NCBI RefSeq assembly: GCF_026914185.1
Contig: NC_070558.1
Span: 6,085,501-6,149,500 of the forward strand
Length of the DNA stretch: 64,000 nt
Source of the DNA: Puccinia triticina
Lineage: Eukaryota; Basidiomycota; Pucciniomycetes; Pucciniales; Pucciniaceae
Direction of reading: 5' to 3'
The notes under the pieces were generated by a model. That model did no database searches and was not told where the DNA came from. It saw only the letters and a list, made by a program, of their open reading frames with translations. Made by a program: the position numbers and the translations under genes. Shown one piece after another: positions 9,561 to 38,376 of the stretch. Position 1 is the first letter of the stretch, and every line of letters begins with the position of its first letter.

Positions 9561-10279
9561 ACTCCATCATAAGTTTTAGCCATTATGATAGAAAAAAATT
9601 GAGGAAACCTGGCAGATTTTTGGTGCCTGCTTTGAAAATGAATATAAAAATATTTTCTGAGAAACCATCAGGGTATGAGTTTACAAAGAGGTCAAAAATC
9701 ATGATCTTCAAAACATGAGTACAGCAAAGGCAGGAAAGCTTGCTGTTTCCTTTGCCGATATTCCACCAAACACCAACCAAACACCAACCAAAAATCATTG
9801 CCGACCAGACCTGCAATACCCCCCACCTTCCACCTTCTTCCTCCATCCTCCCTCCCACTCACCCCCCCCCCCCCCCCCTCCCCCCCCCAACTTGCCCTCC
9901 CCTCCAGGCCTGACCAATTGCACCCACAAGCCAGCCCCCCAGCCAGCAACCCAGCAGCCACACACAGGATTTTTATTTTCCCGCTACCGCTACCGCTACT
10001 GGTGAGTCATGTCCCTCCCCCCATTTTTTGGCCCCACCAACTGACCATTGGGCTTTCCTTTTGCCCTTGGCCACCATCCAGCTGCCAGTCAACCTGTTGA
10101 TCAGCAGCCCACACCAAAAAAACTTTTCAGCCTCTACCAGTGAGTGATTGCCCCCCCCCTTTTTTCGCCGTATCCAACTAACCAATTGGCCCTTCCATTT
10201 GCCCTCGGCCGCCAATCCACCCGTCAATCAGCACCCAGGCAGACCTTACCAGCCACTTGCGCACCCCCACGTCCTCTAT
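9561..10279. repeat. C/T-rich low complexity with a diverged 120-130-bp tandem pair
   Basis: Homopolymer C tracts lie at 9859-9889. From about 10,003 a unit (GAGTCATG...CCCCCCATTTTTTGGCC...CAACTGACCATTGG) is followed at about 10,141 by a second, diverged copy (GAGTGATTGCCCC...CAACTAACCAATTGG). No gene is supported; open frames here are Pro-rich translations of C runs. Confidence 0.5.
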
Positions 10280-10384
10280 ACTGGAAACATTTTCCAACTC
10301 CACCTGGGGGGGAATTTGGGGGGTTTTTGGGTTTTCATTTTTTTTTTCACCTTTTTTTTCACCTTTTTTTGCTTTTTTTTTTTT

Positions 10385-10415
<31 letters not shown>

Positions 10416-10422
10416 CTCAGCA
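10280..10422 (+). repeat. Left copy of an inverted repeat pair (candidate terminal repeat of a 28-kb element)
   Basis: The order of blocks is ACTGGAAACATTTTCCAACTCC, ACCTGGGGGGGAATTTGGGGGG, TTTTTGGGTTTTCA, T runs with two CACC, a long T run, a G run, then GCTCAGCA. The same order occurs in reverse complement at 38,217-38,344. Both copies lie about 140 bp outside the nearest gene end, the transposase stop at 10,564 and the last gene stop at 38,076. Low-complexity content leaves open that this is just a common interspersed repeat. Confidence 0.5.
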
Positions 10423-10563: not shown

Positions 10564-13500
10564 TCAACGGTCAAGAGTTACTAAAGCAATGCAATCCTGC
10601 TTAATAGATGGTAATATTTCACCTGCCTTATACTTAATCCATGCACAGTGAGCAAGAACTTCCTGTGTATGCTTGACATACAGCGTCTCGGTTCGAAGCA
10701 TCCTAAGCTCAAGTTGCAATTCAAATTTCGATTTCGGTATCCCGGCAAAAGGGTTGGAGAAGTTGCATGGCATGAGAGGTTGAATCACCAGCCATGTGTC
10801 GGATCTGCTGGTCCCATTTCCCATGGTTCGCCAATGCTGAAATATGTCTTCGATGATTCCGTAGTGAGGCGCACAGCCGGCTTTCAAGGCAATGACACAG
10901 TTGTTGGGATTTTTTCGAAGGGTGGAGAAGCTAACATTGTTGATCGAGCAGCTTGAAAGCTTTTCTATGCGAGGAGTCACCAGGAGGAACTTTGAAGATT
11001 TAGCTTTTCTTTTCTCTGCCCATTTGTCAGATGGGATCCACGGCGCCCCGGTGGAACAAGGGAAAAGCTTGTTGAGTCGCCTGATGAGAGCTTCTAGCGT
11101 GGTTGAGTCGAGAAATGCTTGGCGATATTTAGGGATTGTTTCAGCCTCAACAGTGATTGGATCCCGGATGGCTTGCAACTGAGGGAGGAAAGGCTTGAGC
11201 TGCTCTGGAAACTTTTCCGGTGTAGACAGCAACACCTGCAGATTACCAAGTCGGCAGAATTTATTCAGGAATGTTATTTCAAGCTGGCCTGTGCGCAAAG
11301 CTATGAGTCAGCTGCGGGTCGACGAACCATAATAAAATCAAGATAAAAACAAACCAAGATGGTTGTTATGCCCGGCCTTTAGAATCTTACCCATCAGCCG
11401 CTCCATTGAGAAAGACCACCAACCTTGCGATGGACCAAACTTATCGAGGCAATCAGCAAGATGGATTGCCATGTGGTGATTCGGGGCTAAAGTCTTGTCG
11501 GGGAAGAGGAGAAGACAACTGGCAAGATATTCCAAAGTATGATGACAATACTTCTCAACTCGCTCGGAGGTCATCGATCTCTTGAGCGCAAGGATGACCA
11601 TCGACACCAGATGAGCAAAATTGCGGAACAGGGAGCAAGCAGCTGGTCCTCCAGACGCCCAGTGAACAGGGAGGATTAGTGGCAGCTGGACGGTGAATAG
11701 GTTCTGCCATTCATCGGCTTTGAGGCTGCCAAACGAAGCTATTCCCAAGACGGGTAGCGCTTGCTCAATCCAAGTCAGGATGCAGATTTGCGGCAGAAGC
11801 TTGTTGATGAACGCCAGAGCATCCTTGTCAAATATGATTTTGCCTGCGCTGGGAGTAGTCCAGGGTCCTGCACCCCATCCTTTGGCTTCAATAAAAGGCG
11901 AGAAGGAGTTGTCGTCGCTGGATTCGATAGACCAGAACTTCATTTCATTGAAGGGCACATCGGCGGAGTCGTCACTGGAAGTTGAGCTAGTTGAGCTTGG
12001 ACTTGGCGATGGAGGACAAAGGGCCAAAAGAATCGGATCAGTAACGTCGGCCCATACACCAAGGAACTCGTAATCTGGGGTTTGTTTTGGTTCAGCTTCA
12101 TCAGCAACGTCTGACATGCACCAGAAGCGCTGGCAATGCCAACGCAACAACCCCAAGAGGAGGTTGTGCATTGAGTCGACAACCTGATAATTAAGGATGT
12201 CCCAGTAGGGAAGTTCGAGGAGGACGGAGTACCTCACACCGTGATCATTCAAGATCTCCCGCCGAGTCTTGAGGTCCGGAGCGTTGCGAGATTTGATTGC
12301 CCATTCTTTGTGATCAGCTAGGTTTTGGGGAGGCCAGGTTTCTCGCTTGAGGTTTGTGATCTGATCCTTTGTCAAAAGACAGTAAGAGCACATTAGATTT
12401 GACGTGGGACCAGGAAATCCAAGAGCACAACGGAGAGCTGGCAAATCTGCGAAGAATGGGAGGATGGCGGCGCGGATGCAGCGGCCTCGAGGTTCCAGAT
12501 ACATCTCAGATAGTGCCAGCCCTGTGGCCCAGAGTACCTTGAGTTGTTCTATGATTGGTCGTAGCATCCAATTTATCTGCTCAAGTGATGGCTCATGTGG
12601 TCCAGGGGCAATTCCTACGACGAATACGTTTTCAGGTTGGTATCGCAGATCTAGAGGGAGAGAATAGCAGACCATGATCATGAAAGTGATACTGGCGTGC
12701 TTCCCTGAAGTCTTGTTCCCGTATGGATTGATGCCGTCCATGAAAACGCCAAAGGTGAGGTTGTCAGAGTTCTTTGTGTACTGGGTTCCATCGGGTCCAA
12801 GGAACTGTTTCCACATCTTTGAATGGTGGATGTCAGTTGCTTCATGGGAAGGGTCGAACGGATCTTGTGCTAGAGTCGCAATTTTTTCCAATGCGACTTC
12901 GATAAGCAGCTCCGGCAGCATATGACTTTGACTAGTTTGGGATCAAGGCGGAACTGCTTGACGAGAGTTTGGATATCAAAAGGCAGAGTGTCAAAAGTTG
13001 AGTGGCTTGTACTTTGAATCGCCGAGTCCACCAGAAGCTGTGAGGGTCATCAGTCCCTTTGCCGATTTCATAAGCCAAGACGAGGTTTTTGAGGATGTAT
13101 GACTGAAAACTGAGAGCATGGCAGTTATCAGCGACATGTGCAAGACTGCCAGGTCGGAATGTCTGAGGCTGAATTGGTGGTATGGACCTGTTCAAAGAAA
13201 TTAAGAACATAAGATATCAGATGAGGCTAGCGTTTGGTCTACATCAAAGGAAGAAAGATGTCGGAAGCAGAGAAAGGACAAAATGCACTCGTAGACATCT
13301 GCTCTGGAGAGGGTTAGTTGATTGATGCTGGGTTGATTGATGTCGGATTCAAATACATTATAGCTGGATTAGTTGGGTGTGCCAGGGTTAGCAGGGTTGC
13401 TGTTGTGATCACGGTCATCATTAGAGTCCTTGTCAGAATCTAGAATTGGCAAGAAAGTGGTGAGATTAGTTTTTGGCCAGGTCCATGAGGGCAGGAGGGA

Positions 13501-14870: not shown

Positions 14871-15118
14871 CCTACCCTGCGTTGCTTGATTTTGCCCGGG
14901 GGGCACATCCACAGTGGTCTTCTCGTTTGGGCACATGGAGGTGGATGGATGGGGTGAAGGATAACTGGGGGAAATGGATGTGGATGATTGGGGTGGGCGG
15001 TTTGGTGAGTTTGATGATAACCCAGATTGCTGGCAACAATGGTGACTGGACTTATAGATATCCAAAGACCTTTGTTCTTTGCTTTGATTAAGTGGTAGAC
15101 TAGCTGTCGGCCGGAGTC

Positions 15119-20442: not shown

Positions 20443-21863
20443 GATCACGCAAATGAGGAATTTATTAATCGGTTCAAGGGCAGTATTTGGGGTAAAACAA
20501 GCGAGCAAAGATTGAAGGGATAAGATTCAAGTAGTATACCTATTGGGTGGCGGGGTAAGAAAGCGGGCAAAGATTCAAGTAGTAAATAAATGGGTAAGGG
20601 TTCAGACGGGTTGTTGGCTCTGAGTCCGATGTAAGCGGGGCAAAGAGGGATTGTTGGCTGTGATCGAAATGCGCAAGCAAACGGAAATAACAGCTCCAAG
20701 CTGTATAATTAAGCGCAAACGTAGTAAACCAAAAAGCACCAGGCTATTATCAGCGATTCGAGTCGGGTGAGGATATCAGCGTCAAGCTGTGTGAAGAGGA
20801 CGATAGCGCAGGGGAGATGTGGACAAAGAAACAGGACAAGACAGAAGTATTTACTTGCCTGCAAATCGTCCGAGAAAAGATCCATGGCCGTCTGAGAAAC
20901 CACAAAGTCGGAAAAGTTGAAAGGGAAAGCGGGCCCACGTGGCCAGAATCGTTGGAATCGTCAATTGTCCTCGCCAAGGCCAGTCTACCGTTTTCGTTGT
21001 CTTTCTTCTTTGAGGCCTTTGAAACCATACTTGCGTTCAATCGGATCCTGGAAGGCTGGCGGCTGGTGGTGGCTGGTCGCACAAGACAAAGACAAACAAG
21101 CGGATTTTACAGTGGTCACATATGTAAGGTTCAGATTTTCAAACGGTCACACCTGACTCCACTGAAAGTAAATATGTAAATACATACATAGTTGTGAGTG
21201 GTATGCATGCGTGATCGGCCGCATTTGAGTTATGACGTATGATTGATTATCATCAATAGGACTTTCTATGTTTATCTAAAATGTCAAGGACTTTCTAGCT
21301 TCTTTATCTAAATAAATAGAAAGGAAAGCGGGAAAACTACTTTGGGTCATGTTTACGCTGACCTCCAAGCCAGCCAATCATCAAAGGATTCAAACGGTCT
21401 CCTCGGCGATTCTATCACCAGCGCAAGGCAGGTTATATTTACGTACGCTGACCTCCAAACGTCTCTCTCTCAAGATTCTAGCTCCCACTCATAAGAAAAA
21501 GGAAAGCCAAACTAACTTCAGGTTGTATATACGCTGACCGCCAAACAAGCCAGCAAAACATCAATGGCCCGCCATGGTCTTCTCGGCCTTATCTCTCCAA
21601 AGCTGATTCTAGCTCCAAAGGGCAGGTTATACGTACGCTGACCTCTGACCTCCAAACAATCCAGCCCATCATCAAAGGACCGCAACGGTCTTCTCGTCCG
21701 TCTCCAAGTCCCTGAATGCGAGCTCTTGAAGTCCAGACCTATCCCGCCGTCCAGCCTCCGAGTCCAAGTCTGCATCCAGCTGTCCACCTTCCAAGTCCGC
21801 GTTTTTTCACCACACCACCCCCATTTGCTTTGTCTCCGCCATCCACGCCGCAGCCCAATAACC
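20443..21863. promoter_or_regulatory. Divergent intergenic region with repeated ACGCTGACCTCCAA motif
   Basis: This 1.4-kb region separates the start of the minus-strand HeH/LEM gene from the start of the plus-strand Pro/Ser/FG-rich gene, so it should hold both promoters. ACGCTGACCTCCAA or a one-base variant occurs at about 21,356, 21,444, 21,531 and 21,635, spaced 88-104 bp, each in a larger imperfect repeat with CATCAAAGGA and GGTCTTCTCG. Near the other gene, AAAGATTCAAGTAGTA recurs at about 20,525-20,585. Regulatory use is inferred from position only. Confidence 0.4.
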
Positions 21864-24800
21864 ATGACAAAGCCCAAGCCCAAGAAGCGCCAACCTCCCG
21901 CCCCATCCACAGAATTTGACCCCTACAATCGTAGAAACCGTCAAAGTGACCTTGTAGCATTCATCACAATGGTCAACCCCGATCATGTACTTCCATCGAA
22001 ACTCAAGATTGATCCCATACGCGACATTGCCAACAACTACGTGGCTATGCTTAGTAAGTTATTTATTTTCTCACTCCAGGGTTTTCCACACCTAAACATT
22101 TAGTTCTTTCCTGGCTCCAGAATCTCGTCAAGCAGAGGAGCCCCCTGAATCACCAACCTCATCTCTCACTTCAATGGAAAGCACGCCGTTGTCGGTAAGA
22201 TCGCCTAACCGGCCAGCAAGGTCACCTGGCCGTTCGGCCCCGAGAATCCCTGACACGCCCTCTCCACCCCCAATAAAAGATCCTCCGCCGCAGCCAAAAT
22301 CAGCCCAACCGCCGGCAAGGAAAGCTTGATCCCCCGCCATCCCCAGCTAGACCATCGGCCAGGGCTGCTCCAGTGAGGTCTGCTGCTAGATCACCGGCAA
22401 GAACTCCGTCAAAAACATCCAAGCGCATCAATCTCAGCGTGTCTGTCTCACCGTCTCCTCAGCGCGGCAGATCCCAAAAAGGAAATTCCAAGCCCCAGCT
22501 GGTCTCGCCTTCTCCCCAAGCCTCTACTCGTGGACGATCCCTGGCAACTCGCAGACGATCCCCGGCAACTCGCGGACAATCCCCGGCAAGACCATCAAAG
22601 CGTAAAACCTCCCCCAGGCAATCTTATTCTCAAAATCGATCCCGATCACCCGCTCCCCAACGGGTCCATTCTTGAAGTTGGTTGCCCAACAAAAAAGCAC
22701 GAGTTCAATCAATGATTCCCACAATCAAACGGCAAGTGACGTTTGCAAGATCCCAGCCCACGAGATACAACGATGATGGAACCTCCAAAGAATCCTTGCA
22801 TGACGATTCATCATCATTATCCAAAGAATTATCCCAAGAATCGTCACAATCAAACAACATGTCCGACTTTCAGTCCAGCGTGTCTGAGTCAAACAACAAC
22901 AGGGCCTCCTGGAAGGGCAAAGCAACCGCCAACTGTCAGTCCAGCGTGTCTGAGTTGGACAACAACAGAGCCTCCAGGAAAGGCAAAGCGACCGCTAAAG
23001 GAAAGAGGAAGCCCCCCCAGAAGCGCGCTACGACTAAGGTAACTCACGGCCGGCCCCGCAGTCAAACAAAGTTAAAATCTGCGCTCATTGTTAAAAAAGT
23101 AAGCTACTTATGTTTCTTTGTTTCTTTTCATCTCTAACATAGCGGTACTGACCTTTTTTTTCTCCCTGAAAGCCAAAAAAGAAGACCAACAGGGAACGCA
23201 TTGAAGAAATTGTATCTACCGTCAACGAGCGTTATAAGGATCAACCTCGGTATATCACACGTTCTGGCCAAGTCCCATCACCGTCCTCGTTTTATTACCC
23301 TGCTCCAAATCAGCGCCCCCCTGATGACCTCTGCTACGCCAAAGAGGGACGACAGGACACAAATTCTTATTCCCGGCCAAAGATTTCACCTTTCTTGCAG
23401 CTACTGCCGGACAGTAATAATTGATCAGAGCAAGATCTCCCGCCATCAAATCCATATAACCCGTGTCCCAAGCGCCGGAGGTACGTTCAACTCCAGGCAG
23501 GAAACCAATTCTATACCACCCCGGGTCTTAATCAACCAGGTGATCAAGATCGGTCTCATGAATGGTGTTTTACCCCCGCCCCAGTTCCGTTCTGTTCCTC
23601 TCCTGCGGAAACCCAACGCCGTAATTCGGACTGCTACCAGCCCAATTCCCCGGCAGTGTCAGCTTCCTACTCCTACCAGCCAAATTCCTACTCCTTCTAG
23701 TCCAATTCCCCGGCCCAGCCCAATGTAGCGCCAACCTACGGTTATCAGTCTAATGTAGCACCTTCCTACGGATATCCGACTGACAATCCTGCCAACACAT
23801 TCCAGTCCAATTCAACCCCGGCTTTTAATGGATACAAACCCTTGTCGACACATTTTGATCATACTCCTCAGAGATTTGAAGTGAGTGATACATCACACTT
23901 GAGATTCTCTTCTATTCACACTAACGGCCTTGTTTGACCTCTGCGCCTAGACCGCAGGAGCCACAGGCAGCCAAAAGCAAGGGGAGTCAAGTGGCCCAAA
24001 GCCTTTCGACTACTCACAGTATTGGAATCCCGTTACCCAATCATATCTCACGTCAACTCAACCCAGCAATCAGGCGCCAATATCGGCTCCACCGAAAGAT
24101 TCAAGCTGCACATTCAACTTCTCTTGTCCATCCAGTAACCAGGAAACCGCGCCGGCCCCTACTCAAGAAAAGCGGCTGCCGCCACCACCACCCAGTAGAT
24201 TGGGCCAGTCAGTCTCGGCTCCTCATCCCAGTCTCATCGCAGCGCCGCCGCCATCGAGTCAATTCTCAGCGCCAACACCTCAGTTTGCAGGGCTCTCACC
24301 TGCGCCGCCACCGCTATCCAGTCAATTTGGCCAGTCAGTGACAACAGCTCAACGTAGTCACTTCGCCCAGTCCGCGGCACCACCCGTGCAGCCACCAATA
24401 TCAAGTCAATTCGGCCAGTCAGCGTCAACAACTCAGCCTAAACCTAGTCTCTACGCCCATTCTGCGGCACCACCCCCGCCACCGCCATCCTGTCGATTCG
24501 GCCAGTCAGCGCCAGCAGCTCAGCCCAGTCATTTTGGCCATTTCTCGCAGCCGAGTCAGTTCAGTATGAACTCACAGCTCAGTCTGTCCGGTCAGTCCTC
24601 ACTGTTGACTGCCACTCCCTTCAAGCCAACAATTTCCCAGCCCACCACAAATAACCCATTCATGCCGCCGAGTGCCTCGACTTCCTTCTGGGATCCAAAG
24701 GCGATACCACCACCTCAAGTCAGCCTTGGCATCCAATCCCGCCCTGGTCCCAGCCCAGTCTGCCATAAAGACAAAGGCAACTCTTTTTCCCCAGCCACAG

Positions 24801-25166
24801 CAACCCAACCCCGTCCCTCTTTTTCCTGCGCCTCAGCAGCCTCATTGGGGTGAGGGTAAACAGGCTAAAAGTAAGTCTGCTCAAAGAGCACGATTGCAAG
24901 CCTATCAATGCAACTTTCCTTCTCCACCCACTTCCCCCACATTCATCGCTCCTCAAGATTCCAACGTTGATGATTTATTGGCCGCTGTTTCCCGCCTTAA
25001 TATCATTCGTCCGATTGTTCCAATTCGTCGAAAAAATGAGAAAACCACAGTTCGCTTCGCTGACGATCATTCCTTATTGACTCATGCGCATCAAATACTA
25101 GCCAACTTTCTCGGCAACAATGAAGATTTGCGGACAATTGATCCGCAGCTCCTTTCCAATCCTCCT
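21864..25166 (+). pseudogene. Pro/Ser-rich protein with SQFGQS repeats, 5' part of a transposon-split gene
   Basis: ATG at 21,864 opens a basic N terminus (MTKPKPKKRQ). Exons are 21,864-22,053, 22,121-23,098, 23,173-23,880 and 23,951-25,166, each joined in frame by GTAAGY/GTGAGT donors and AG acceptors. Exon 2 is rich in SPAR/RSP repeats. Exon 4 has four SxxFGQS blocks between Pro-rich spacers, similar in style to FG nucleoporin repeats. The end is an acidic/hydrophobic segment (DDLLAAVSRLNII, ILANFLGNNEDLRTI). Breaks: stop and shift at about 22,328, TGA at 22,673-22,675, TGA at about 23,422, TAG at about 23,699, and a shift at about 24,720. The frame is cut at 25,166 by a CACTA-ended element and resumes at 37,537. 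I do not recognise the family. Confidence 0.6.
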
Positions 25167-25851
25167 CACTACCAAGATGGATGAATTTGCGATGTCGTAT
25201 ATTGATCAATATAGCGTATATTGATCAATTCATGTTGATCAATTTTTTTTTTTATTATTCCTCTTGATACCTTTGTCTGTTTTCCATGTCTCCTTGATAC
25301 TATTCTATAATCTCTCTCCTTCTGCCTGTGTTAGCTTCAAGCCACAGGAATTTTTTTTTTCTTTTGCCTGATAACATTCATAAATTTCTACATACACCAC
25401 TCAATTCTTCCTGAAAAAAAGACGTTGCAAGTTTGAGGATTAATCCAGGGTAGCTGAGGGGTCTCAAATTTTTTTTCTTTTTTTTTTTTATTTCAACAAT
25501 TGATGTTATCAGAAGTCTCCAAATCGACTTTTTTTTCAAAAGAGGAAAAACATTGACCCCTGGACTCTCTCATGATACCATCCTGCACACATTTTTAATT
25601 TGGCTGGTTGAACTTGCTCAAGATATTGCATATCATACTTGAAGTGCTACATGCATAGAAGGCCTTTTTGAAATTAGTTTACCATGGTTTAGCATATTTT
25701 TGTCAGGTTCTTTTTTTTATCTACTTTTGTTATCAACCACAGATTAATGAGGAATATTTCCACATAAAATTTCATCGGACAATTTTTCTGCATATAAAAC
25801 CCAGAAATATTTTAAAATATAATTTATTTGGGGTCGCATCCATTATGCAGC
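25167..25851 (+). repeat. Left inverted arm of the CACTA-type element
   Basis: This non-satellite arm is the reverse complement of 36,889-37,533 with only scattered differences (for example GATGTCGTAT against GATGTTGTAT) plus a short AT-rich insertion near 25,810. It includes T-rich tracts and the palindromic ATTGATCAAT sites. The satellite begins directly after it. Confidence 0.85.
25201..25240 (+). promoter_or_regulatory. Subterminal palindromic ATTGATCAAT motifs (candidate transposase sites)
   Basis: The 10-bp palindrome ATTGATCAAT occurs at 25,201-25,210 and 25,220-25,229, with a one-base variant at about 25,234. Matching sites lie at 37,476-37,485 and 37,490-37,499 in the right arm. CACTA elements usually carry short repeated subterminal sites bound by their TNPA-type protein; that role is inferred here. 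Confidence 0.45.
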
Positions 25852-28012
25852 AGCAACAATGTGATCAGTTCCCAAATATCACTAATTTGGTAGTTTCTGG
25901 CCCTTTCTGCCACTATATCTCAACACAGCGTGGGAGTTCTTCCATGATATTGGTATCAAAATGATCAATAGCCCCCAAGGATTCATTTTGTACCTTAAAT
26001 TACCACATAACCCAAATGTAGCAGCTACAATCTGATCAGTTGCCAAATGTCACTAATTTGGTAGTTTCTTGGTGTTGCTGCCACTATATCTCAACACAGC
26101 CTGGAAGTTGTTCCATGATATTGGTATCATAATGATCAATAGCCACCAAGGATTCATTGTGTACCTTGAATGACCACAAAACCTCCAAATGTAGCAGCCA
26201 GGATGTGACCAGTTGCCATATCTCACTAATTTGGTAGTTTCTTGGTGTTTCTGCCACTATATCTCAGCGCAGCATGGGAGTTCTTCCATGATATTGGTAC
26301 CAAGATGATCAAATGCCCTCAAAGATTGATTGAGTACCTCCAATGACCACAAAACCCCCAATTGTAGCAGGCACAATGTGATCAGTTGCAAAATATCACT
26401 AATTTGGTAGTTTCTTGGTGTTTCTGCCACTATATCTCATCACAGCATGGGAGTTCTTCCATGATATTGGTACCAAAATGATCACATGCCCTCAAACATT
26501 CATTGAGTACCTTGTGTGACCACAAAACCCCCAAATGTAGCAGCCACAATGTGATCAGTTGCCAAATATCACTAATTTGGTGTTTCTGCCACTATATCTC
26601 AGCGCACCATGGGAGTTCTTCCATGATATTGGTAACAAAATGATCACATGCCCCTCAAGATTCATTGTGTACCTTGAATGACCACAATACCCCCAAATGT
26701 AGCAGCCACACTGTGATCAGTTGCAAAATATCACTAATTTGGTAGTTCCTTCGTGTTTCTGCCACTATGTCTCAGTGCAGCATGGGAGTTCTCCCATGAT
26801 ATTGGTACCAAAATGATCACATGCCCTCAGAAATACATTGTGTACCTTTAATGACCACAAAAACCCCAAATGTAGCAACTACAAAGTGATCGGTTCCCAA
26901 ATATCATTAATTTGGTAGTTTCTTGGTGTTGCCGCCACTATATCTCATCACCGCATGGGATTTCTTCCATGATATTGGTACCAAAATGTTCACATGCCCT
27001 CAAACGTTCATTGAGTACCTTTTGTGACCACAAAACCCCCAAATGTAGCAGCCACAATGTGATCAGTTGCCAAATATCACTAATTTGGTGTTTCTGCCAC
27101 TATATCTCAGCGCAGCATGGGAGTTCTTCCATGATATTGGTAACAAAATGATCACATGCCCCTGAAGATTCATTGTGTACCTTTAATGACCAAAATACCC
27201 CCAAATGTAGCAGCCACACTGTGATCAGTTGCAAAATATCACTAATTTGGTAGTTCCTTTGTGTTTCTGCCACTATATCTCAGTGCAGCATGGGAGTTCT
27301 TCCATGATATTGGTACCAAAATGATCACATGCCCTCAGAAATTGATTGTGTACCTTGAATGACCACAAAATCCCCAAATGTAGCAGCTAAAAAGTGATCA
27401 GTTGCCAAATATCACTAATTTGGTTGTTTCTTGGTGTTTCTGCCACCATATCTCAGCGCAGCATGGGAGTTCTTCCATGATATTGGTACCAAAATGATCA
27501 AATGCCCTCAAAAATTCATTGAGTACCTTGTATGACTACAATACCCCCAAATGTAGGACCCACACTGTGATCAGCCGCAAAATATCACTAATTTGGTAGT
27601 TTCTTGGTGTTTCTGCCACTATATCTCAGCACAGCATGGGAGTTCTTCCATGATATTGGTAACAAAATGATCACACGCCCTCAAACATTTATTGAGGCCC
27701 TTGGGTGACCACAAAACCCCCAAATGTAGCAGCCACAATGTGTTCAGTTGCCAAATATCACTAATTTGGTAGTTGCTTGGTGTTTCTGCCAGTATATCTC
27801 AGCCCCGCGTGGGAGTTCTTCCATGATATTGGTACCAAAATTATCACATGCCCCTGAAGATTCATTGTGTACCTTGAATGATCACAAAACCCCCAAATGT
27901 AGCAGCCACAATGTGATCAGTTGACAAATAACACTAATTTGGTAGTTTCTTGATGTTTCTGCCACTATATCTCAGCACAGCGTGGGAGTTCTTCCATTAT
28001 ACTGGTACCAAA

Positions 28013-30960
28013 ATGGCCCAATGCCTTCAAAGATTCATTGAGTACCTTGGATGACCACAAAACCCCCAAATGTAGAGCCACAATGTGATCATTTGCCAAA
28101 TATCACCAATTTGGTAATTTCTTGGTGTTTCTGCCACTGTATCTCAGCGCAGCATAGGAGTTCTTCCATGATATTGGTACCAAAATGATCAAATGCCCTC
28201 AAACATCCATTGAGTATCTTGGATGACCAGTAAACCCCCAAATTGGATGACCACAAAACCCCCAAATGTAGCAGCCACAATCTGATCAGTTGACAAATAT
28301 CATTCATTTGGTAGTTTCTTGGTGTTTCCACCACTATATCTCAGCACAGCGTGGGAGCTTTTCCATGATATTGGTACCAAAATGATTAATCCCCGCTGAA
28401 GATTCATTGTGTACCTTGAATGACCACAAAACCCCCAAATGTAGCAGGGACACTGTGATCAGTTGCCAAATATCACTAATTTGGTAGTTTCTTGGTGTTT
28501 CTGCCACTATATCTCAGCACATCGTAGGAGTTCTTCCATGATATTGGTACCAAAATGATGAATCCCCGCTGAAGATTTATTATGTACCTTGGATGACCAC
28601 AAAACCCCAGTTGTAGCAGCCACAATGTGATCAGTTGCCAAATATCACTAATTTGGTAGTTTCTTGGTGTTTCTGCCACTATATCTCAGCGCAGCATGGG
28701 AGTTCTTCCATGATATTGGTACCAAGATGATTATTCACCCCTGAAGATTCATTGTGAACCTTGAATGACCACAAAACCCCCAAATGTAGCAGCGACAGTG
28801 TGATCAGTTGCCAAATGTCACTAATTTGGTAGTTTCTTGGTGTTTCAGCCACTATATCTCAGTGCAGCATGGGAGTTCTTCCATGATATTGGTACCAAAA
28901 TGATCACATGCCCTCAAACATTCATTGTGTACCTTGAATGACCACAAAACCCCCAAATGTAGCAGCGACACTGTGATCAGTTGCCAAATATCACTAATTT
29001 GGTAGTTTCTTGTTGTTTCCGCCACTATATCTCAGCACAGCGTAGGAGTTCTTCCATGATATTGGTACCAAATTGATTAATCACCCCTGAAGATTTATTA
29101 TGTACCTTGGATGACCACAAAACCCCAGTTGTAGCAGCCACAATGTGATCAGTTGCCAAATATCACTAATTTGGTAGTTTCTTGGTGTTGCTGCCACTAT
29201 ATCTCAGCGCAGCATGGGAGTTCTTCCATGATATTGGTACCAAAATGATTATTCACCCCTGAAGATTCATTGTGAACCTTGAATGACCACAAAACCCCCA
29301 GATGTAGCAGCGACAGTGTGATCAGTTGCCAAATGTCACTAATTTGGTAGTTTCTTGGTGTTTCAGCCACTATATCTCAGTGCAGCATGGGAGTTCTTCC
29401 ATGATATTGGTACCACAATGATCACATGCCCTCAAACATTCATTGAGTATCTTGGATGACCACAAAACCCCCAAATGTAGCAGCCACCATGTGATCAGTT
29501 GCCAAATATCACTAATTTGGTAGTTTCTTGATATTTCTGCCACTATATCTCAGCCCCGCGTGGGAGTTCGTCCATGATATTGGTACCAAAATTATCACAC
29601 AAAACCCCTCAATGTAGCAGCCACAATGTGATCAGTTGCCAAATATCACTAATTTGGTGTTTCTGCCACTAGTATATCTCAGCGCAGCATGGGAGTTCTT
29701 CCATGATATTGGTAAAAAAAAGATCACATGCCCCTGAAGATTAATTGTGTACCTTGAAAGGCCACAATAACCCCAAATGTAGCAGCCACACTGTGATCAG
29801 GTGCAAAATATTACTAATTTGGTAGTTTCTTGGTGTTTCTGCCACTAAATCCCAGCGCAGCGTGGGATTTCTTCCATGATATTGGTACGAAAACTATCAC
29901 ATGCCCCTGAAGATTTATTGTGTACCTTGAATGACCACAAAAACCGCAAATGTAGCAGCTAAAAAGTGATCAGTTGCCAAATATCACTAATTTGGTAGTT
30001 TCTTGGTGTTTCTGCCACGATATCTCCGCCCAGCATGGGAGTTCTTCCATGATACTGGTACCAAAATGATCCAATGCCTTCAAAGATTCATTGGTACCTT
30101 GGATGACCACAAAACCCCCAAATGTAGAGCCACAATGTGATCATTTGCCAAATATCACTAATTTGGTAGTTTCTTGGTGTTTCTGCCACTATATCTCAGC
30201 GCAGCATAGGAGTTCTTCCATGATATTGGTACGAAAATGATCAAATGCCCTCAAACATCCATTGAGTATCTTGGATGACCACAAAACCCCAAAATTGGAT
30301 GACCACAAAACCCCCAAATGTAGCAGCCACAATCTGATCAGTTGACAAATATCACTAATTTGGTAGTTTCTTGGTGTTTCGGCCACTATATCTCAGCACA
30401 GCGTGGGAGTTGTTCCATGATGTTGGTGCCAAAATGATTATTCCCTGCTGAAGATTCATTGTGTACCTTGAATGACCACAAAACCCCCAAATATAGCAGG
30501 GACACTGTGATCAGTTGCCAAATATCACTAATTTGGTAGTTTCTTGGTGTTTCTGCCACTATATCTCAGCACATCGTAGGAGTTCTTCCATGATATTGGT
30601 ACCAAAATGATGAATCCCCGCTGAAGATTCATTGTGTACCTTGGATGACCACAAAACCCCAGTTGTAGCAGCCACAATGTGATCAGTTGCCAAATATCAC
30701 TAATTTGGTAGTTTCTTGGTGTTTCTGCCACTATATCTCAGCGCAGCATGGGAGTTCTTCCATGATATTGGAACCAAAATGATTATTCATCCCTGAAGAT
30801 TCATTGTGTACCTTGATTGACCACAAAACCCCCAAATGTAGCAGCGACAGTGTGATCAGTTGCCAAATGTCACTAATTTGGTAGTTTCTTGGTGTTTCGG
30901 CCACTATATCTCAGTGCAGCATGGGAGTTCTTCCATGATATTGGTACCAAAATGGTCACA
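28013..30960 (+). repeat. Higher-order repeat, period about 2,052 bp (12 monomers)
   Basis: Private variants recur at a constant offset. TGTAGAGCCACAATG is at 28,071 and 30,123. A partial extra unit with a doubled TGGATGACCA block is at about 28,223-28,260 and 30,275-30,310. AGCGACAGTGTGATC is at 28,791 and 30,842. A shorter period of about 510-518 bp (three monomers) is also visible, for example 26,573 against 27,081 and 28,611 against 29,129. This shows stepwise block amplification. Confidence 0.75.
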
Positions 30961-33505
30961 TGCCCTCAAAAATTCATTGAGTATCTTGGATGACCACAAA
31001 ACTTCCAAATGTAGCAGCCAGCATGTGATCAGTTGACAAATATCACTAATTTGGTAGTTTCTTGGTGTTTCTGCCACTATATCTAAGCACAGCGTGAGAG
31101 TTCTTCCATGATATTGGTACCAAAATGATCAATCACCGCTGAAGATACATTGTGTACCTTGAATGACCACAAAACCCCCAAATGTAGCAGCGACACTGTG
31201 ATCAGTTGCCAAATATCACTAATTTGGTAGTTTCTTGGTGTTTCACCCACTATATCTCAGTGCAGCATGGGAGTTCTTCCATGATATTAGTACCAAAATG
31301 ATCACATGCCCTCAAACATTCATTGAGTATCTTGGATGACCACAAAACCCCCAAATGTAGCAGCCACCATGTGATCAGTTGCCAAATATCACTAATTTGG
31401 TAGTTTCTTGATGTTTCTGCCACTATATCTCAGCCCCGCGTGGGAGTTCTTCCATGATATTGGTACCAAAATTATCAAAAGCCCCTGAAGATTCATTGTG
31501 TACCTTGAATGACCACAGAACCCCCAAATGTAGCAGCCACAATGTGATCAGTTGCCAAATATCACTAATTTGGTAGTTTCTTGATGTTTCTGCCACTATA
31601 TCTCAGCACAGCGTTGGATTTCTTCAATAGTATTTGTACCAAAATGATCACATGCCCTCAAACATTCATTGAGTACCTTGGATGACCACAAAACCCCCAA
31701 ATGTAGCAGCCACCATGTGATCAGTTGCCAAATATCACTAATTTGGTAGTTTCTTGGTGTTTCTGCCACTATATCTCAGCGCAGCGTGGGAGTTCTTCCA
31801 TGATATTGGTACCAAAATTATCACATGCCCCTGAAGATGCATTGTGTACCTTGAATGACCACAAAACCCCCAAATGTAGCAGCCACAATGTGATCAGTCG
31901 CCAAATATCACTAATTTGGTAGTTTCTTGATGTTTCTGCCACTATATCTCAGCACAGCGTGGGAGTTCTTCAATGGTATTTGTACCAAAATGATCACATG
32001 CCCTCAAAGTTTCATTGAGTACCTTGGATGACCACAAAACCCCCAAATGTAGCAGCGACAGTGTGGTAAGTTGCCAAATGTCACTAATTTGGTAGTTTCT
32101 TGGTGTTTTGGCCACTATATCTCAGTGCAGCATGGGAGGTCTTCCATGATATTGGTACCAAAATGATTAATCACCGCTGAAGATTCATTGTGCACCTTGA
32201 ATTACCACAAAACCCCCAAATGTAGCAGCAACACTGATCAGTTGCCAAATATCACTAATTTGGTAGTTTCTTGGTGTTTCCGCCACTATATCTCAGCACA
32301 GCGTGAGAGATCTTCCATGATATTGGTACCAAAATGATTGATCACCGCTGAAGATTCATTGTGTACCTTGAATGACCACAAAACCCCCAAATGTAGCAGC
32401 AACACTGTGATCAGTTGCCAAATATCACTAATTTGGTAGTTTCTTGGTGTTTCTGCCACTATATCTCAGCACAGCATAGGAGTTCTTCCATGATATTGGG
32501 AACAAAATGATCAAATGCCCTCAAACATCCATTGAGTATCTTCGATGACCACAAAACCCCCAAATGTAGCAGCCACCATGTGATCAGTTGCCAAATATCA
32601 CTAATTTGGTAGTTTCTTGGTGTTTCTGCCAGTATATCTCAGCCCTGCGTGGGAGTTCTTCCATGATATTGGTACCAAAATTATCACATGCCCCTATAGA
32701 TGCATTGTGTACCTTGAATGACCACAAAACCCCCAAATTTAGCAGCCACAATGTGATCAGTTGACAAATAACACTAATTTGGTAGTTTCTTGATGTTTCT
32801 GCCACTATATCTCAGCACAGCGTGGGAGTTCTTCCATGATATTTGTGCCAAAATGATCACATTCCCTCAAGCGTTCATTGGGTACCTTGGATGACCACAA
32901 AACCCCCAATTAAATGTAACAGCCACAATGTGATCAGTTGCTAAATATCACTAATTTGGTAGTTTCTTGGTGTTTCTGCCACTATATCTCAGGCCGGCAT
33001 GGGAGTTCTTCCATGATATTGTTACCAAAATGATCAAATGGCCCTGAAGATTTATTGTGTACCTTGGATGACCACAAAACCCCCAAATGTAGCAGCCACA
33101 ATGTGATCAGTTGCCAAATATCACTAATTTGGTAATTTCTTGGTGTTTCTGCCACTATCTCTCCGCCCAGCATGGGAGTTCTTCCATGATATAGGTATAT
33201 CAAAATGATCACCTGCCCTCAAATATTCATTGAGTACCTTGGATGACCACAAAACCCCCAAATGTAGCAGCCACAATGTGATCAGTTGACAAATATCACT
33301 AATTTGGTAGTTTCTTGATGTTTCTGCCACTATATCTCAGCACCGCGTGGGAGTTCTTCCATGATATTTTTACCAAAATGATCACATGCCCCTAAGCATT
33401 CATTTTGTACCTTGGATGACCACAAAACCCCCAAATGTAGCAGCCACAATGTGATCAGTTGCCAAATATCACTAATTTGGTAGTTTCTTGGTGTCTGCAA
33501 CTATA

Positions 33506-34472
33506 TGTCAGCCGGCTACGCAGCGCAAGCCAGCGTAACAATTATACAAATGATTATAAATAAAATTTCACGTTTTTTGTGTGACAGATGTCTATGTAAT
33601 CTGTCACATATAATATAAAAATATAATAAATACATAAAAATATATTGTACATATAATTTAATATTGATAGTTATCTTTAAAAATAGATAATATTGGTAAT
33701 ATACTCCGGGTGAAGTATAAAGTACACCCGGGTGAGCAAGTTACACCTGTCAAAGATATTCAAGTGACACGTGTCCAGGGTCCGGTAATTTTAGAGAGAT
33801 TATACTCAAGTACGATCTTATAGATAAAGACTTCCCCATCAGAATTCAAGATGAACAGACCAACATCGATAACTAACCGCGCCCCAATCAAGCACGAGAA
33901 AAGATAGATTGACGGATATCAACGGCCCCATTGCAAGACAAAGGATCATCGAGCGATAGTTACCGCCCCAGTCCGTAGTCTTTGAAGAGACTTCCCCATT
34001 GAAATTGGATACATTTCGGATATATAAAGAGGTCCGTTCTCCCTCTTCTCTTTTCTCCTCAGCTTAAGACAACCGACCGACATTCTACTACCAGCTTCGC
34101 ATTGATATTTTATCAGTTTTGATCGATCTCGTCTTCCAACAGTCTCAGTCTATAGCCTTCCGTAAATTCTCGATCCTCTTTTGCTGCGATAAAAGATTGG
34201 TTCTTTCATATAAGTAAGTAAGAACCCTTTTCTTCTTATCGCCGCTACTTCCTTTTTACCCGTAAGACTGGGAACAGAACAACACCTGCTAGCAAGCCCC
34301 AGCAGTTATCCTTGGAGGGATCAAAACTACCCCTGTTTGCAGGCCCCTCCTTAAAAATATATTTCTTTTATTTTATTTATTCAAACTAAAAACAACCCCA
34401 AACAATCCATTTTATTCACTATCTCCTGGTGTAGCTAGAGGAACCTTGTTCTTGGCATCACCGAGGCTGACA
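33506..34472 (+). mobile_element. Solo LTR (967 bp) inserted in the satellite
   Basis: The sequence begins TGTCAGCC and ends GGCTGACA, an 8-bp inverted terminus. It is flanked on both sides by CTATA (33,501-33,505 and 34,473-34,477), a 5-bp target duplication cut from the satellite's own CACTATATCTCAG. A TATA-like box (TATATAAAGA, 34,021) and a CT-rich start region lie in the middle, as expected for an LTR promoter. Its right end is related to the LTR at 1-163. The internal region was presumably lost by LTR-LTR recombination. Confidence 0.9.
34021..34030 (+). promoter_or_regulatory. TATA-like box of the solo LTR
   Basis: TATATAAAGA is followed within about 30-40 bp by CT-rich sequence (CCCTCTTCTCTTTTCTCC), a plausible U3/R promoter layout. 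Confidence 0.5.
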
Positions 34473-35815
34473 CTATATCTCAGGCCAGCATGGGAGTTCT
34501 TCCATGATATTGGTACCAAACTGATCAAATGGCCCTGAAGATTCATTGTGTACCTTGGATGACCACAAAACCCCCAAATGTAGCAGCCACAATGTGATCA
34601 GTTGACGAATATCACTAATTTGGTAGTTTCTTGATGTTTCTGCCACTATATCTCAGCACAGCGTGGGAGTTCTTCCATGATATTGGTACCAAAATGATTA
34701 ATTCCCGCTGAAGATTCATTGTGTACCTTTAATGACCACAAAACCCCCAAATGTAGCAGCAACACTGTGATCAGTTGCCAAATATCACTAATTTGGTAGT
34801 TTCTTGGTGTTTCCGCCACTATATCTCAGCACAGCGTAGGAGTTCTTCCATAATATTGGTACCAAAATGATTAATCACCGCTGAAGATTCATTTTGTACC
34901 TTGAATGACCACAAAACCCCCAAATGTAGCAGCAACACTGATCAGTTGCCAAATATCACTAAGTTGGTAGTTTCTTGGTGTGGCCACTATATCTCAGTGC
35001 AGCATGGGAGTTCTTCCATGATATTGGTACCAAAATGATCACATGCCCTCAAACATTCATTGAGTATCTTGGATGACCACAAAACCCCCAAATGTAGCAG
35101 CCACAATGTGATCAGTTGCCAAATATCACTAATTTGGTAGTTTCTTGATGTTTCTGCCACTATATCTCAGCCCCGGATGGGAGTTCTTCTATGATATCGG
35201 TACCAAAATTATCACATGACCCTGAAGATTCATTGTGTACCTTGAATGACCACAAAACCCCCAAATGTAGCAGCCACAATGTGATCAGTTGCCAAATATC
35301 AATAATTTGGTAGTTTCTTGGTGTTTCTGCCACTATATCTCAAAGCAGCCTGGGAGTTCTTCCATGATATTTGTACCAAAATAATCACATGCCCCTAAGC
35401 ATTCATTGTGTACCTTGGATGACCACCAAACCCCCAAATGTACCAGCCACACTGTGATCAGTTGCAAAATATCACTAATTTGGTAGTTCCTTCGTGTTTC
35501 TGCCACTATATCTCAGTGCAGCATGGGAGTTCTTCCATGATATTGGTACCAAAATGATCACATGCCCTCAGAAATTCATTGTGTACCTTGAATGACCACA
35601 AAATCCCCAAATGTAGCAGCTACAAAGTGATCAGTTGCCAAATATCACTAATTTGGTAGTTTCTTGGTGTTTCTGCCACTATATCTCAGCTCAGCGTGGG
35701 AGTTCTTCCATGATGTTGGTACCAAAATGATCAAACCCCCCTGAAGATTCATGGTGTACCTTGAATGACCACAATACCCCGAAATGTAGCAGCCACACTG
35801 TGATCAGTTGCCAAA

Positions 35816-35845
35816 TTAGTGATATTTGGCAACCATTCACATTGT
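35816..35845. repeat. Satellite orientation switch at the monomer hairpin
   Basis: Up to about 35,815 the monomers read GATCAGTTGCCAAAT; directly after they read CCAAATTAGTGATATTTGGCAAC, the reverse complement of the monomer hairpin block. From here to 36,888 all copies are inverted. The junction lies in the palindromic CCAAAT...ATTTGG core, as expected if a foldback at that hairpin produced the inversion. Confidence 0.8.
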
Positions 35846-36888
35846 AGCTGCTACATTTGGGGATTTTGTGGTCATTCAAGGTACACAATTCATCTTTGAG
35901 GGCATTTAGTCATTTTGGTACCAATATCATTGAAGAATTCCCACGCTGCGCTGAGATATAGTGGCAGAAACAACAAGAAACTACCAAATTGGTGATATTT
36001 GGCAACTGATCACATTGTGGCTGCTACATATGGGGGTTTTGTGGTCATTCCAGGTACTCAATGAATCTTTGAGGGAATTTGATCATTTTGATACCAATAT
36101 TATGGAAGAAATCCCACGCTGCCCTGAGATATAGTGGCAGAAACAGCAGAAACTACCAAATTAGTGATATTTTGCAACTGATCACATCCTAGCTGCTACA
36201 TTTGAGGGTATTGTGGTCATTCAAGGTCCACAATTAATCTTCAGGGAAATTTGATCATTTTGGTAGCAATATCATGGAAGAACTCCCACGCTGTGCTGAG
36301 ATATAGTGGCAGAAACACCAAGAAACTACCAAATTAGTAATATTTGGCAACTGATCACATTGTGGCTGCTACATTTGGGGGTTTTGTGTTCATTCAAGGT
36401 ACACAATGAATATACAGGGGCATGTGATTATTTTGGTACCAATATCCTGGAAGAACTCCCACGCTGTGCTGAGATATAGTGGCAGAAACACCAAGAAACT
36501 ACCAAATTAGTGATATTTGGTAACTGATCACATTGTGGCTGCTACATTTGGGGGTTTTGTGGTCATCAAAGGTACTCAATGAATGTTTGAGGGCATGTGA
36601 TTATTTTGGTACCAATATCATGGAAGAACTCCCAGGCTGCTTTGAGATATAGTGGCAGAAACACCAAGAAACCACCAAATTAGTGATATTTGGCAACTGA
36701 TCAGGTTGCAGGGCTACATTAGGGAGTTTCATGGTAATTTAAGGTACGCAATGAATCCTTGGGGACTATTGATTATTTTGAAACCAATATCATCGAAGAA
36801 CTGCCAGGTTGTGTTGAGATATAGTGGCAGAAACACCAAGAAACTACCAAATTAGTGATATTTGGCAACTGATCAGATTGCAGCTGCT

Positions 36889-37533
36889 GCATAATGGATG
36901 TGACCCCAAAAACATTATTTCTGGGTTTTATATTCAGAAAAATTGTCCAACAAAATTTTATGTGGAAATATTCCTCATTAATCTGTGGTTGATAACAAAA
37001 GTAGATAAAAAAAAGAACCTGACAAAAATATGCTAACCCATGGTAAACTAATTTCAAAAAGGCCTCCTATGCATGTAGCACTTCAAGTATGATATGCAAT
37101 ATCTTGAGCAAGTTCAACCAACCAAATTAAAAATGTGTGCAGGATGGTATCATGAGAGAGGTCAGGGTCCAATGTTTTTCCTTTTTTGAAAAAAAAGTCA
37201 ATTTGCAGACTTCTGATAACAGATCAATTGTTGAAGTAAAAAAAAAAGAAAAAAAAATTGAGACCCCTCAGCCACCCTGGATTAATCCTAAAACTTGCAA
37301 TGTTATTTTTTCAGGAAGAATTGAATGGTGTATGTAGAAATTTATGAATGTTATCAGGCAAAAAAAAAAATTCCTGTGGCTTGAAGCTAACACAAGGGGA
37401 AGGAGAGAGATTATAGAATGGTATTAAGGAGACATGGAAAACAGACAAAGGTATCAAGAAGAATAATAAAAAAAAATTGATCAATATAAATTGATCAATA
37501 TACAACATCGCAAATTCATCCATCTTGGTAGTG
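36889..37533 (-). repeat. Right inverted arm of the CACTA-type element
   Basis: Reverse complement of the left arm, ending ...CATCTTGGTAGTG at 37,533 and followed by the CCT target duplication. It starts where the last inverted monomer meets the ATAATGGATGTGACCCC block, mirrored at about 25,840 on the left. Confidence 0.85.
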
Positions 37534-38076
37534 CCTCATAGCGTTTCCAACAAAGCCGCCACCACCTCTTCATCATTGGGTCCTGATATTGAGACTGCAT
37601 CAGGACCAGCGCCCGTTTCCGAACATCAATCCATTCCAACAGCCCCAGCGCCTCAATCCGTTCAAACAGCCCCAGCGCCCGCATCTATTCAAGCGCCCAT
37701 ATCCGCACCTCAATCCATTCAAACATCACAAGCACCCCCTGTACTATCTGCGCCGCCGCCACCACCACCACCAAAGCAACTCAGACTTAGCCAAAGCCAA
37801 CACGCACCCACGCAGGCACTTATTCCTAGGCCAGGTTGTACTCAAAGCCAACCTGTATCAGACCAAGTGCTACAGCCACCCTCAAACAGCCCATCACTCA
37901 AGCCACCCGTCCCCAATCATCAGCCACCCTCAAACAGCCGATCACTCACGCCGTCCTCTGCCAACACTCAATCCTCCAACAGCTTCCCTACATTCAAAGT
38001 CAAGCCACCTACCTCTACTGTAGCCAGCCCACCTGCGGCCAATCCTCCTGTTCCCAATACATCTGAATCCATGTAA
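37534..38076 (+). pseudogene. 3' part of the transposon-split Pro/Ser-rich gene
   Basis: No start codon is present. The open frame begins in the transposon arm and is coding-like from CCT (37,534) to a TAA at 38,076. It is Pro/Ser/Gln-rich with APAPQS/APxSIQ repeats and a PPPPPPP run, in keeping with the low-complexity style of the 21.9-25.2-kb gene. Codon phase matches: CCT at 25,164 and CCT at 37,534 are both complete codons, so deleting one CCT plus the element gives a continuous frame of about 180 more codons. Confidence 0.7.
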
Positions 38077-38216: not shown

Positions 38217-38344
38217 TGCTGAGCTGCCCCCCCCCCCCCCACCAAAAAAAATATGAAAAAAGGTGAGAAAAAGGTGAAAAAAAAAATGAAAACCCAAAAA
38301 CCCCCCAAATTCCCCCCCAGGTGGAGTTGGAAAATGTTTGCAGT
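38217..38344 (-). repeat. Right copy of the inverted repeat pair (candidate terminal repeat)
   Basis: Reverse complement of 10,280-10,422 with the same block order: GCTGAGC, C run, A run, two GGTGA blocks, AACCCAAAAACCCCCC, CCCAGGTGGAGTTGG, AAAATGTTTGCAGT. It ends exactly where a perfect palindrome starts (38,345). No matching target duplication could be found beside the two copies. Confidence 0.5.
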
Positions 38345-38376
38345 AGATTTGTGAGTGAGATCTCACTCACAAATCT
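38345..38376. repeat. Perfect 32-bp palindrome
   Basis: AGATTTGTGAGTGAGA is followed immediately by its exact reverse complement with no spacer. It directly abuts the right copy of the inverted repeat, which hints at a junction or footprint. Confidence 0.9.

What the first reader, a model, noticed from the sequence alone, without database searches (positions are those of the whole stretch)
25164..37536. A 12.4-kb CACTA-ended transposon made of satellite DNA splits a host gene in frame
The element has CACTACC/GGTAGTG ends, long inverted arms and a CCT/CCT 3-bp duplication. Its interior is almost entirely a 172-bp tandem satellite with no coding sequence. The flanking reading frame (codon CCT at 25,164 and codon CCT at 37,534) rejoins exactly if one CCT and the element are removed. 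A mobile element that carries a satellite array would give satellites a way to spread.
Basis: partly seen in the sequence, partly recalled or inferred. Interest (0 to 1): 0.92.

Follow-up and report, generated by a model that had tools for sequence, protein, structure and literature searches.

The report
Satellite-filled CACTA foldback transposon, nested insertion
In a wheat leaf rust genome, a repetitive DNA (a satellite) travels as the payload of a mobile element whose ends occur hundreds of times; the copy examined here lies inside another mobile element rather than, as first thought, in an ordinary gene.

Summary
Window 25167-37533 (12,367 bp) has CACTACC...GGTAGTG ends, 1.75-kb inverted arms, a CCT/CCT duplication and an 83% satellite interior. 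It belongs to a family: 225+231 matching ends in the genome (control 0). Seventeen of 21 copies checked have exact 3-bp duplications; one lies in a tandem repeat whose other units show the empty site. In 19 of 20 mapped copies the satellite switches strand once; 10 of 20 share a letter-identical centre; 18 of 18 classified copies carry one L and one R arm. They descend from one foldback founder that moved as a unit while array sizes changed. A second end type (67+63 ends) carries the same satellite in opposite polarity in the one copy read. No autonomous partner was established, though Tnp2 (PF02992) transposases abound.

Correction: the broken gene is not shown to be a host gene. It lies within a larger Tnp2-type transposon (inverted arms 10279-10422/38217-38345), and its annotated haplotype-B homologue ends before the insertion point.

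Precedents exist (CACTA with a 171-bp satellite in quinoa; foldback Tetris in Drosophila), so this is a new variant of a known kind.

The parts
25164..25166 (.). Left 3-bp target-site duplication CCT
25167..25838 (+). Left (L-type) arm; begins CACTACCAAGATGGATGAATTTGCGATGT
25839..35817 (+). Satellite array, 172-173-bp unit, + orientation (interrupted 33513-34465)
33513..34465 (.). Non-satellite stretch inside the array, origin unknown; no match in the loaded loci and no terminal repeats found
35805..35860 (.). Centre junction where the satellite changes strand; letter-identical in 10 of 20 mapped elements
35873..36900 (-). Satellite array, - orientation
36901..37533 (-). Right (R-type) arm; ends ...CTTGGTAGTG
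37534..37536 (.). Right 3-bp target-site duplication CCT
21969..25166 (+). 5' part of the interrupted P/Q-rich gene; annotated haplotype-B homologue PtB15_1B661 aligns to 21969-24850 only
37534..38076 (+). Open frame on the far side, taken as the 3' part of the same gene; no credible paralogous match found for it
10279..10422 (+). Left inverted arm of the larger Tnp2-type transposon that holds the gene
11338..12921 (-). Transposase_21 (PF02992, Tnp2) open frame of the larger transposon
38217..38345 (-). Right inverted arm of the larger Tnp2-type transposon; its outer 63 bases recur behind all four gene relatives

Best explanation
A non-autonomous CACTA/EnSpm-type (3-bp TSD) foldback transposon whose payload is a satellite array. 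A founder with two arms (L and R, now about 6% apart), a fixed centre and satellite units reading inward from both ends was copied to roughly 225 places, presumably by a Tnp2-type transposase supplied in trans (inferred). During and after the spread the arrays gained, lost and exchanged units (shown by comparison), while ends, arms and, in most mapped copies, the centre stayed. The window copy inserted into the right-hand gene of a larger Tnp2-type transposon, so it is a transposon inside a transposon.
For: Ends: 225+231, control 0. Adjacent listed ends closer than 35 kb point inward 47 times, outward 6, same way 4 (192 listed ends); lengths of the 47 inward pairs 2,591-34,873, median 8,537. 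Exact 3-bp TSD in 17 of 21 (14 of 18 in L009-L026, plus WIN, L027/28 and C9). L025 sits in a 39-bp tandem repeat: left flank ends ATA, right begins ATA, and 7 other units in the flanks run through that point without insert or duplication. Strand switch once in 19 of 20. Centre 56/56 identical in 10 of 20, at most 3 changes in 14 of 20; 43 places genome-wide match a 31-base pattern of it with at most 2 changes. One L and one R arm in 18 of 18 classified (L017 and L019 were dropped before that count). The nearest unit lies in another element for 388 of 516, median distance 3.6% against 6.5% for the best in the same element, close to like-arm divergence of 3.4-4.1%. Tnp2: 150 of 179 candidates scored, all 150 over the cut-off. 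One nested Tnp2 element shows CACCA...TGGTG ends with ATA/ATA, the same kind of hallmark.
Against: No autonomous element with these ends was established: 1 of 47 pairs encloses a scored Tnp2, and that Tnp2 has its own ends. Twelve scored Tnp2 lie within 40 kb on the inner side of a listed A end, three within 10 kb, about what chance gives (my estimate about 2), so a partner is neither shown nor excluded. Four of 21 copies lack an exact TSD (L010, L014, L017, L020). L017 has 19% satellite and short terminal repeats; L023 has the centre flipped relative to the arms; in L015 and L022 the centre was not found at the switch. Same-element nearest units (128) exceed the 30 expected, so local duplication also occurs. 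Movement was not observed.
Confidence: 0.86

Rival explanations
1. Each locus received a small CACTA element with a few tandem units, and long arrays then grew locally and independently (satellite amplified in place at each site).
For: Array length varies widely; 128 of 516 units have their nearest relative in the same element against about 30 expected; a few near-identical units (under 3% apart) recur in the window array, e.g. 3 pairs at lag 3 and 3 at lag 11; only 30 of 423 neighbour steps keep order between elements.
Against: 388 of 516 units are closest to a unit in another element; mean within-element divergence (12.9%) is almost that between elements (13.6%); the 30 collinear steps exceed shuffles (mean 0.93, max 3 of 200).
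Confidence: 0.1
2. An independent genomic satellite was scattered by ectopic recombination, and the CACTA ends are passengers.
For: The same satellite is joined to two different arm types in opposite polarity, so arms and array are separable. Array order between copies is mostly scrambled. 2 of 12 arrays seen have no listed end nearby.
Against: Exact 3-bp TSDs abut the ends in 17 of 21 copies; L/R arms and centre keep their order in most; 10 of the 12 satellite arrays seen in the first 100 exact word places lie within about 1.1 kb of a listed A or B end or arm (my reading of the lists).
Confidence: 0.05
3. The satellite arrays are real, but the exact array lengths and strand switches are assembly errors.
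For: Tandem arrays are hard to assemble; no reads were available here.
Against: The same 56-base centre recurs letter for letter in 10 separate loci, and the total satellite word count (6,469) fits the number of ends times the sampled mean (471 words in 20 elements).
Confidence: 0.04
4. The interrupted gene is a true host gene, and the surrounding inverted arms are coincidence or a separate event.
For: Two proteins of the family occur in Puccinia graminis (P0005, P0006). The C18 relative has no Tnp2 match beside it. The palindrome outside the window's right arm is not found behind the relatives.
Against: A 144-column inverted repeat encloses Tnp2 and gene together. The four best Tnp2 matches lie 11-23 kb from four of the five gene copies. 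The outer 63 bases of the right arm recur 0.3-0.9 kb behind the open frame in 4 of 4 relatives (scores 22-44; 0 of 500 shuffles each; best of 30 other loci 16).
Confidence: 0.15

Closest known systems
CACTA-like (Jozin) element with captured 171-bp satDNA array, Chenopodium quinoa (PMC8978399, passages read)
   Same: CACTA superfamily ends; a long array of a roughly 172-bp satellite (5,550 bp, 32.5 units) inside the element; authors propose spread by the element
   Different: There the element keeps its coding sequence and has one array near the 3' end. Here the window copy has no coding sequence and is mostly satellite in two opposed arrays, with hundreds of ends in a fungus.
Tetris foldback transposon, Drosophila virilis (PMC4079207; abstract, part 1 of Results and part 1 of Discussion read)
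   Same: Non-autonomous; long inverted arms; about 220-bp tandem units within the arms; array number varies; autonomous partner not found
   Different: 8-10-bp TSD, tentatively assigned by its authors to Mutator; three complete copies; large arrays thought to disrupt the element. Here 3-bp TSD and long arrays within elements that keep both ends.
EnSpm/CACTA families of Puccinia (PMC12730594, passages read)
   Same: 5'-CAC..GTG-3' termini and 3-bp TSD; related families reported from P. triticina
   Different: Those are described by their transposases; 'satellite' occurs 0 times in the main text
Jozin-derived satDNA family of Chenopodium (PMC7320549, abstract and outline only)
   Same: Link between CACTA elements and a satellite
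   Different: There satellite units arise from a piece of the tnp2 gene; here no origin of the unit was found
Galileo, Drosophila (named in the PMC4079207 discussion)
   Same: Foldback-like with internal tandem repeats in the arms
   Different: P superfamily; its repeats are said there to contain additional transposase binding sites. Here only a weak 8-base likeness between unit and end was seen (control probability about 3.5%)

Membership tests
CACTA/EnSpm (CMC) DNA transposon | Terminal inverted repeats beginning CACTA | tested here: met
   both ends CACTACC.../...GGTAGTG; 456 ends, control 0
CACTA/EnSpm (CMC) DNA transposon | 3-bp target-site duplication | tested here: met
   17 of 21 A-type copies and 1 of 1 B-type copy exact; internal empty sites in L025
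CACTA/EnSpm (CMC) DNA transposon | Encodes a Tnp2-type (PF02992) transposase | tested here: not met
   No frame of 120 aa or more in the window element; ten longer frames from six other elements gave no transposase family; 1 of 47 pairs encloses a scored Tnp2 and that one has its own ends. So at most a non-autonomous member.
CACTA/EnSpm (CMC) DNA transposon | An autonomous partner sharing the ends | tested here: inconclusive
   not established; the end lists and the scored Tnp2 list are incomplete, and some Tnp2 lie 6-7 kb inside a single listed end (e.g. C12:1968072, C11:2414262)
CACTA/EnSpm (CMC) DNA transposon | Subterminal repeats bound by transposase | tested here: inconclusive
   8-mer TTGGTAGT shared by unit and end, present in 430 of 516 units; control probability 0.035; conservation rank 39 of 165
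Foldback transposon | Long inverted arms with internal tandem repeats | tested here: met
   one strand switch in 19 of 20
Satellite DNA | Head-to-tail units of constant length | tested here: met
Satellite DNA | Arrays that exist independently of the element | tested here: inconclusive
   10 of 12 arrays seen lie beside a listed end or arm; 2 (C2:2196949, C2:3322077) have none in the incomplete lists
MITE | Short element (hundreds of bases) | tested here: not met
   shortest pair 2.6 kb, median 8.5 kb

The most novel reading that the evidence does not exclude
Nearly all copies of this satellite in the genome are payload of two related CACTA-type end families (A and B), which carry the same satellite in opposite polarity. 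The satellite would then be a modular cargo loaded onto transposon ends at least twice (or flipped once), and in this fungus dispersed satellite DNA would be a product of transposition rather than of local amplification.
Probability: 0.4. Interest if true: 0.7.

Novelty: new variant of a known kind. Interest (0 to 1): 0.52.

Why it matters
How satellites reach many chromosomes is an old question. Here ends, centre and arms mark descent while array size varies, so capture, spread and later array change can be told apart copy by copy. Two end families with opposed polarity give a natural test of cargo exchange. Long inverted satellite arrays dispersed over chromosomes may also be sources of double-stranded RNA and of rearrangements (inference).

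Tried and rejected
Arm open frame of 131 aa seen in several copies: rejected as coding. Among 39 aligned arm copies, 25 have indels and differences by codon position are 7.9, 10.4 and 6.3%; no Pfam match.

C9:1317625-1348522 as autonomous partner: rejected. Its Tnp2 lies in a separate nested element of about 22 kb with CACCA ends and ATA/ATA.

Units as amplified transposase-binding sites: only weak support.

Exclusion pattern for further end types: 73 ends, of which 21 read CACTACCAACATGG. Against a partial Tnp2 table one Tnp2 lay within 40 kb on the inner side of one of the 73 ends (5.9 kb, C12); not followed up.

Related empty sites among loaded flanks of L009-L026 other than L025: none with both flanks. 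The 0.95-kb gap in the window array: no match in the loaded loci, no terminal repeats. The upstream gene fragment gave no database protein at E 1e-3. The palindrome outside the window's right arm is not shared by the gene relatives.

Papers: searches listed no title or abstract on satellite-filled CACTA elements in rust fungi. The library is open-licence only and most hits were seen as listings. Passages of four further papers were looked at: PMC12210899 (rust mobilomes; 'satellite' 0 times, CACTA once), PMC12129025, PMC10977897 and PMC9659126 (review).
Full report
What is there. The element at 25167-37533 is 12,367 bp with CACTACCAAG...CTTGGTAGTG ends and CCT on either side. The first 1.75 kb aligns with the reverse complement of the last 1.72 kb at 87.5%. 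Profile search maps satellite units on the + strand from window 25839 to 35817, with a 0.95-kb interruption, and on the - strand from 35873 to 36900; together they are 83% of the element. The unit is 173 bp by TRF and 172 columns in the alignment of 516 full-length units. There is no stop-to-stop frame of 120 aa or more in it.

Where it comes from. The window lies on contig 1 of an 18-contig, 122.8-Mb genome. A protein identical to one encoded on contig 3 is recorded as PtA15_3A317 of Puccinia triticina, on a contig of 8,806,656 bases, the length of contig 3 here. So this is P. triticina, apparently haplotype A of isolate 15 (the reading of the tag is mine). Two other P. triticina isolates have 18 chromosomes per haplotype (PMC10627818, passages).

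The family. A 29-base end pattern with up to 3 mismatches has 225 forward and 231 reverse matches, reversed-pattern control 0 and 0. I could list 178 exact ends and 14 near ones. Neighbouring listed ends under 35 kb apart face inward 47 times, outward 6 and the same way 4; the 47 pairs run from 2,591 to 34,873 bp, median 8,537, 40 of them at most 15 kb. The longest may be chance pairs or hold nested elements. I fetched 18 whole pairs plus one in two tiles and the ends of one more.

Target sites. Exact 3-bp duplications: 14 of 18 in L009-L026 and the window copy, L027/28 and the C9 pair, together 17 of 21. L010, L014, L017 and L020 lack one. L025 is inserted in a 39-bp tandem repeat. Its left flank ends in ATA, the right begins with ATA, and seven other units in the flanks (one of them differing at a few bases) run through that point without the insert or the duplication. 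That is an internal empty site and fixes the element's borders.

Architecture. In 19 of 20 mapped elements the satellite reads + from the left and - from the right with one switch; L017 is the exception. Satellite share is at least 0.5 in 17 of 20. L014 holds a foreign stretch with repeated frames at both sides and an 874-aa frame without a Pfam match; L017 and L019 are reduced. The place of the switch differs between copies, yet the 56 bases across it are letter-identical in 10 of 20 and within 3 changes in 14 of 20. The same centre occurs at 43 places in the genome within 2 changes of a 31-base pattern. For arm types I left out L017 and L019 beforehand. In the other 18, each arm was assigned to the nearer window arm: all 18 have one L and one R arm, and in 15 of 18 the type agrees with the direction of the centre. 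L023 is flipped inside; in L015 and L022 the best centre match is not at the switch, so they say nothing. Unlike arms differ by 6.3% on average between elements, like arms by 4.1% (L) and 3.4% (R). A single founder with this layout is the simplest reading.

How the array changed. Units differ by 12.9% within and 13.6% between elements; the nearest unit is in another element for 388 of 516, though same-element nearest units (128) exceed the 30 expected. The median distance to the best unit elsewhere is 3.6%, close to like-arm divergence; within the same element it is 6.5%. Order is kept for only 30 of 423 neighbour steps, still above shuffles (mean 0.93, max 3). So most unit types seem to have been in the founder and travelled with it; local duplication, loss and exchange then reshuffled them strongly. 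The molecular route (unequal exchange, or gap repair after excision) is inference.

A second end type. The first satellite array listed on contig 1 (2736-2746 kb) runs outward instead of inward. It is an 11,504-bp element with ATA/ATA, arms 93.6% alike, ends CACTACAAACATGGATGAATTTGGG; only the outer 70-90 bases resemble type A clearly (74-85%), and the satellite is in the opposite polarity. Type B has 67+63 ends, control 0, and among 100 listed ends 28 neighbouring pairs under 35 kb face inward, none outward and 3 the same way. Only one B element was read, so its polarity may not be general.

How much satellite is cargo. A 26-base satellite word has 6,469 matches within 2 mismatches, control 0. 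The 20 mapped elements hold 471, or 23.5 each. About 228 A elements at that mean would give about 5,400, leaving about 1,100 for about 65 B elements. This is consistent with most satellite being cargo but does not prove it, since the sample favours intact elements. Of 12 arrays among the first 100 exact places (C1 and part of C2), 10 lie within about 1.1 kb of a listed A or B end or arm and 2 do not (my reading of the lists).

The gene that was hit. Its 5' half has four further relatives (C3 three times, C18), 41-61% identical, in open frames of 464-705 aa that carry no insert at the homologous point. The 3' half found no credible match in them. The window region 10279-38345 is bounded by inverted arms: 144 columns, the first 60 with one difference, the rest partly low-complexity. 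It holds a Transposase_21 open frame at 11338-12921. The four best matches of that transposase (itself, 81, 69 and 69%) lie 11-23 kb from four of the five gene copies. DNA likeness to window 13000-24600 falls at the same three C3 places in 19 of 20 rows, partly in inverted order (the list omits the window itself, so it is incomplete). The outer 63 bases of the window's right arm recur behind the frame in 4 of 4 relatives with alignment scores of 44, 22, 29 and 24, reached by 0 of 500 shuffles each; the best of 30 other loci scored 16. The protein PtA15_3A497, which by eye is the L031 gene, has a close copy recorded as PtB15_1B673 (90% over 1,072 columns), by its tag on another chromosome of the other haplotype, which suits a mobile gene. 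So the gene is best read as part of a large Tnp2 transposon. The haplotype-B homologue of the window gene, PtB15_1B661, is 96.8% identical over 217 aa and ends where the window frame ends at about 24,850, before the insertion. The 'in frame' split is therefore a phase agreement, not shown to split a working protein.

Mechanism. Hallmarks fit a CACTA/EnSpm transposase: CACTA ends and 3-bp duplications. EnSpm families with CAC..GTG ends and 3-bp duplications are reported from Puccinia, with related families in P. triticina (PMC12730594, passages). The genome gave 150 scored Tnp2 matches (of 179 candidates), all above Pfam's cut-off, and one nested Tnp2 element in a satellite array has CACCA...TGGTG and ATA/ATA. 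The partner that moves type A was not established: 1 of 47 pairs encloses a scored Tnp2, and that one is nested; 12 scored Tnp2 lie within 40 kb inside of a listed A end, e.g. C12:1968072 and C11:2414262 at 6-7 kb, about as many at short range as chance would give by my estimate.

Novelty. A CACTA element with a 171-bp satellite array is published for quinoa (PMC8978399) and a foldback element with tandem units in its arms for Drosophila (PMC4079207). The combination here (mostly satellite, opposed arrays, a founder centre kept letter for letter in half the sample, two end types with opposite polarity, hundreds of ends, in a fungus) I did not find in the searches.

Noticed in passing
window 10279-38345: A larger Tnp2-type transposon with 144-column inverted arms encloses the whole finding; a 32-bp perfect palindrome lies just outside its right arm.
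   Followed up: partly
G000 C9:1319252-1341165 (L064, L066, L075, L077, L078): An element of about 22 kb with CACCAGGGAAG ends, ATA/ATA duplication and a 768-aa Tnp2 frame sits inside a satellite array of another copy.
   Followed up: yes
C1:2735558-2747061 (L079-L082): Second end type (B) with the same satellite in opposite polarity; 67+63 ends in the genome.
   Followed up: partly
one search places, e.g. C9:3028108-3031303: 21 of 73 ends read CACTACCAACATGGATGAATTTG(T/A), a possible third end type; one pair is 3.2 kb apart.
   Followed up: no
C12:1968072, C11:2414262, C12:556412: Tnp2 matches 6-7 kb inside a single listed CACTACCAAGATGG end; possible but untested partners.
   Followed up: no
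L014: A satellite element interrupted by a foreign insert with similar frames at both sides and an 874-aa open frame between them, no Pfam match.
   Followed up: partly
L023: Interior flipped relative to the arms: exact centre, but in the opposite direction to the L/R arms.
   Followed up: partly
window 48307-50294 and 59222-60695: Fragments that look like retrotransposon polyproteins (Pol_BBD match in 48307-49254; the other by recall of the sequence type).
   Followed up: no
PtA15_3A497 and PtB15_1B673: Closely similar P/Q-rich genes (90% over 1,072 columns) recorded on different chromosomes of the two haplotypes, suggesting movement or exchange of the larger transposon.
   Followed up: partly
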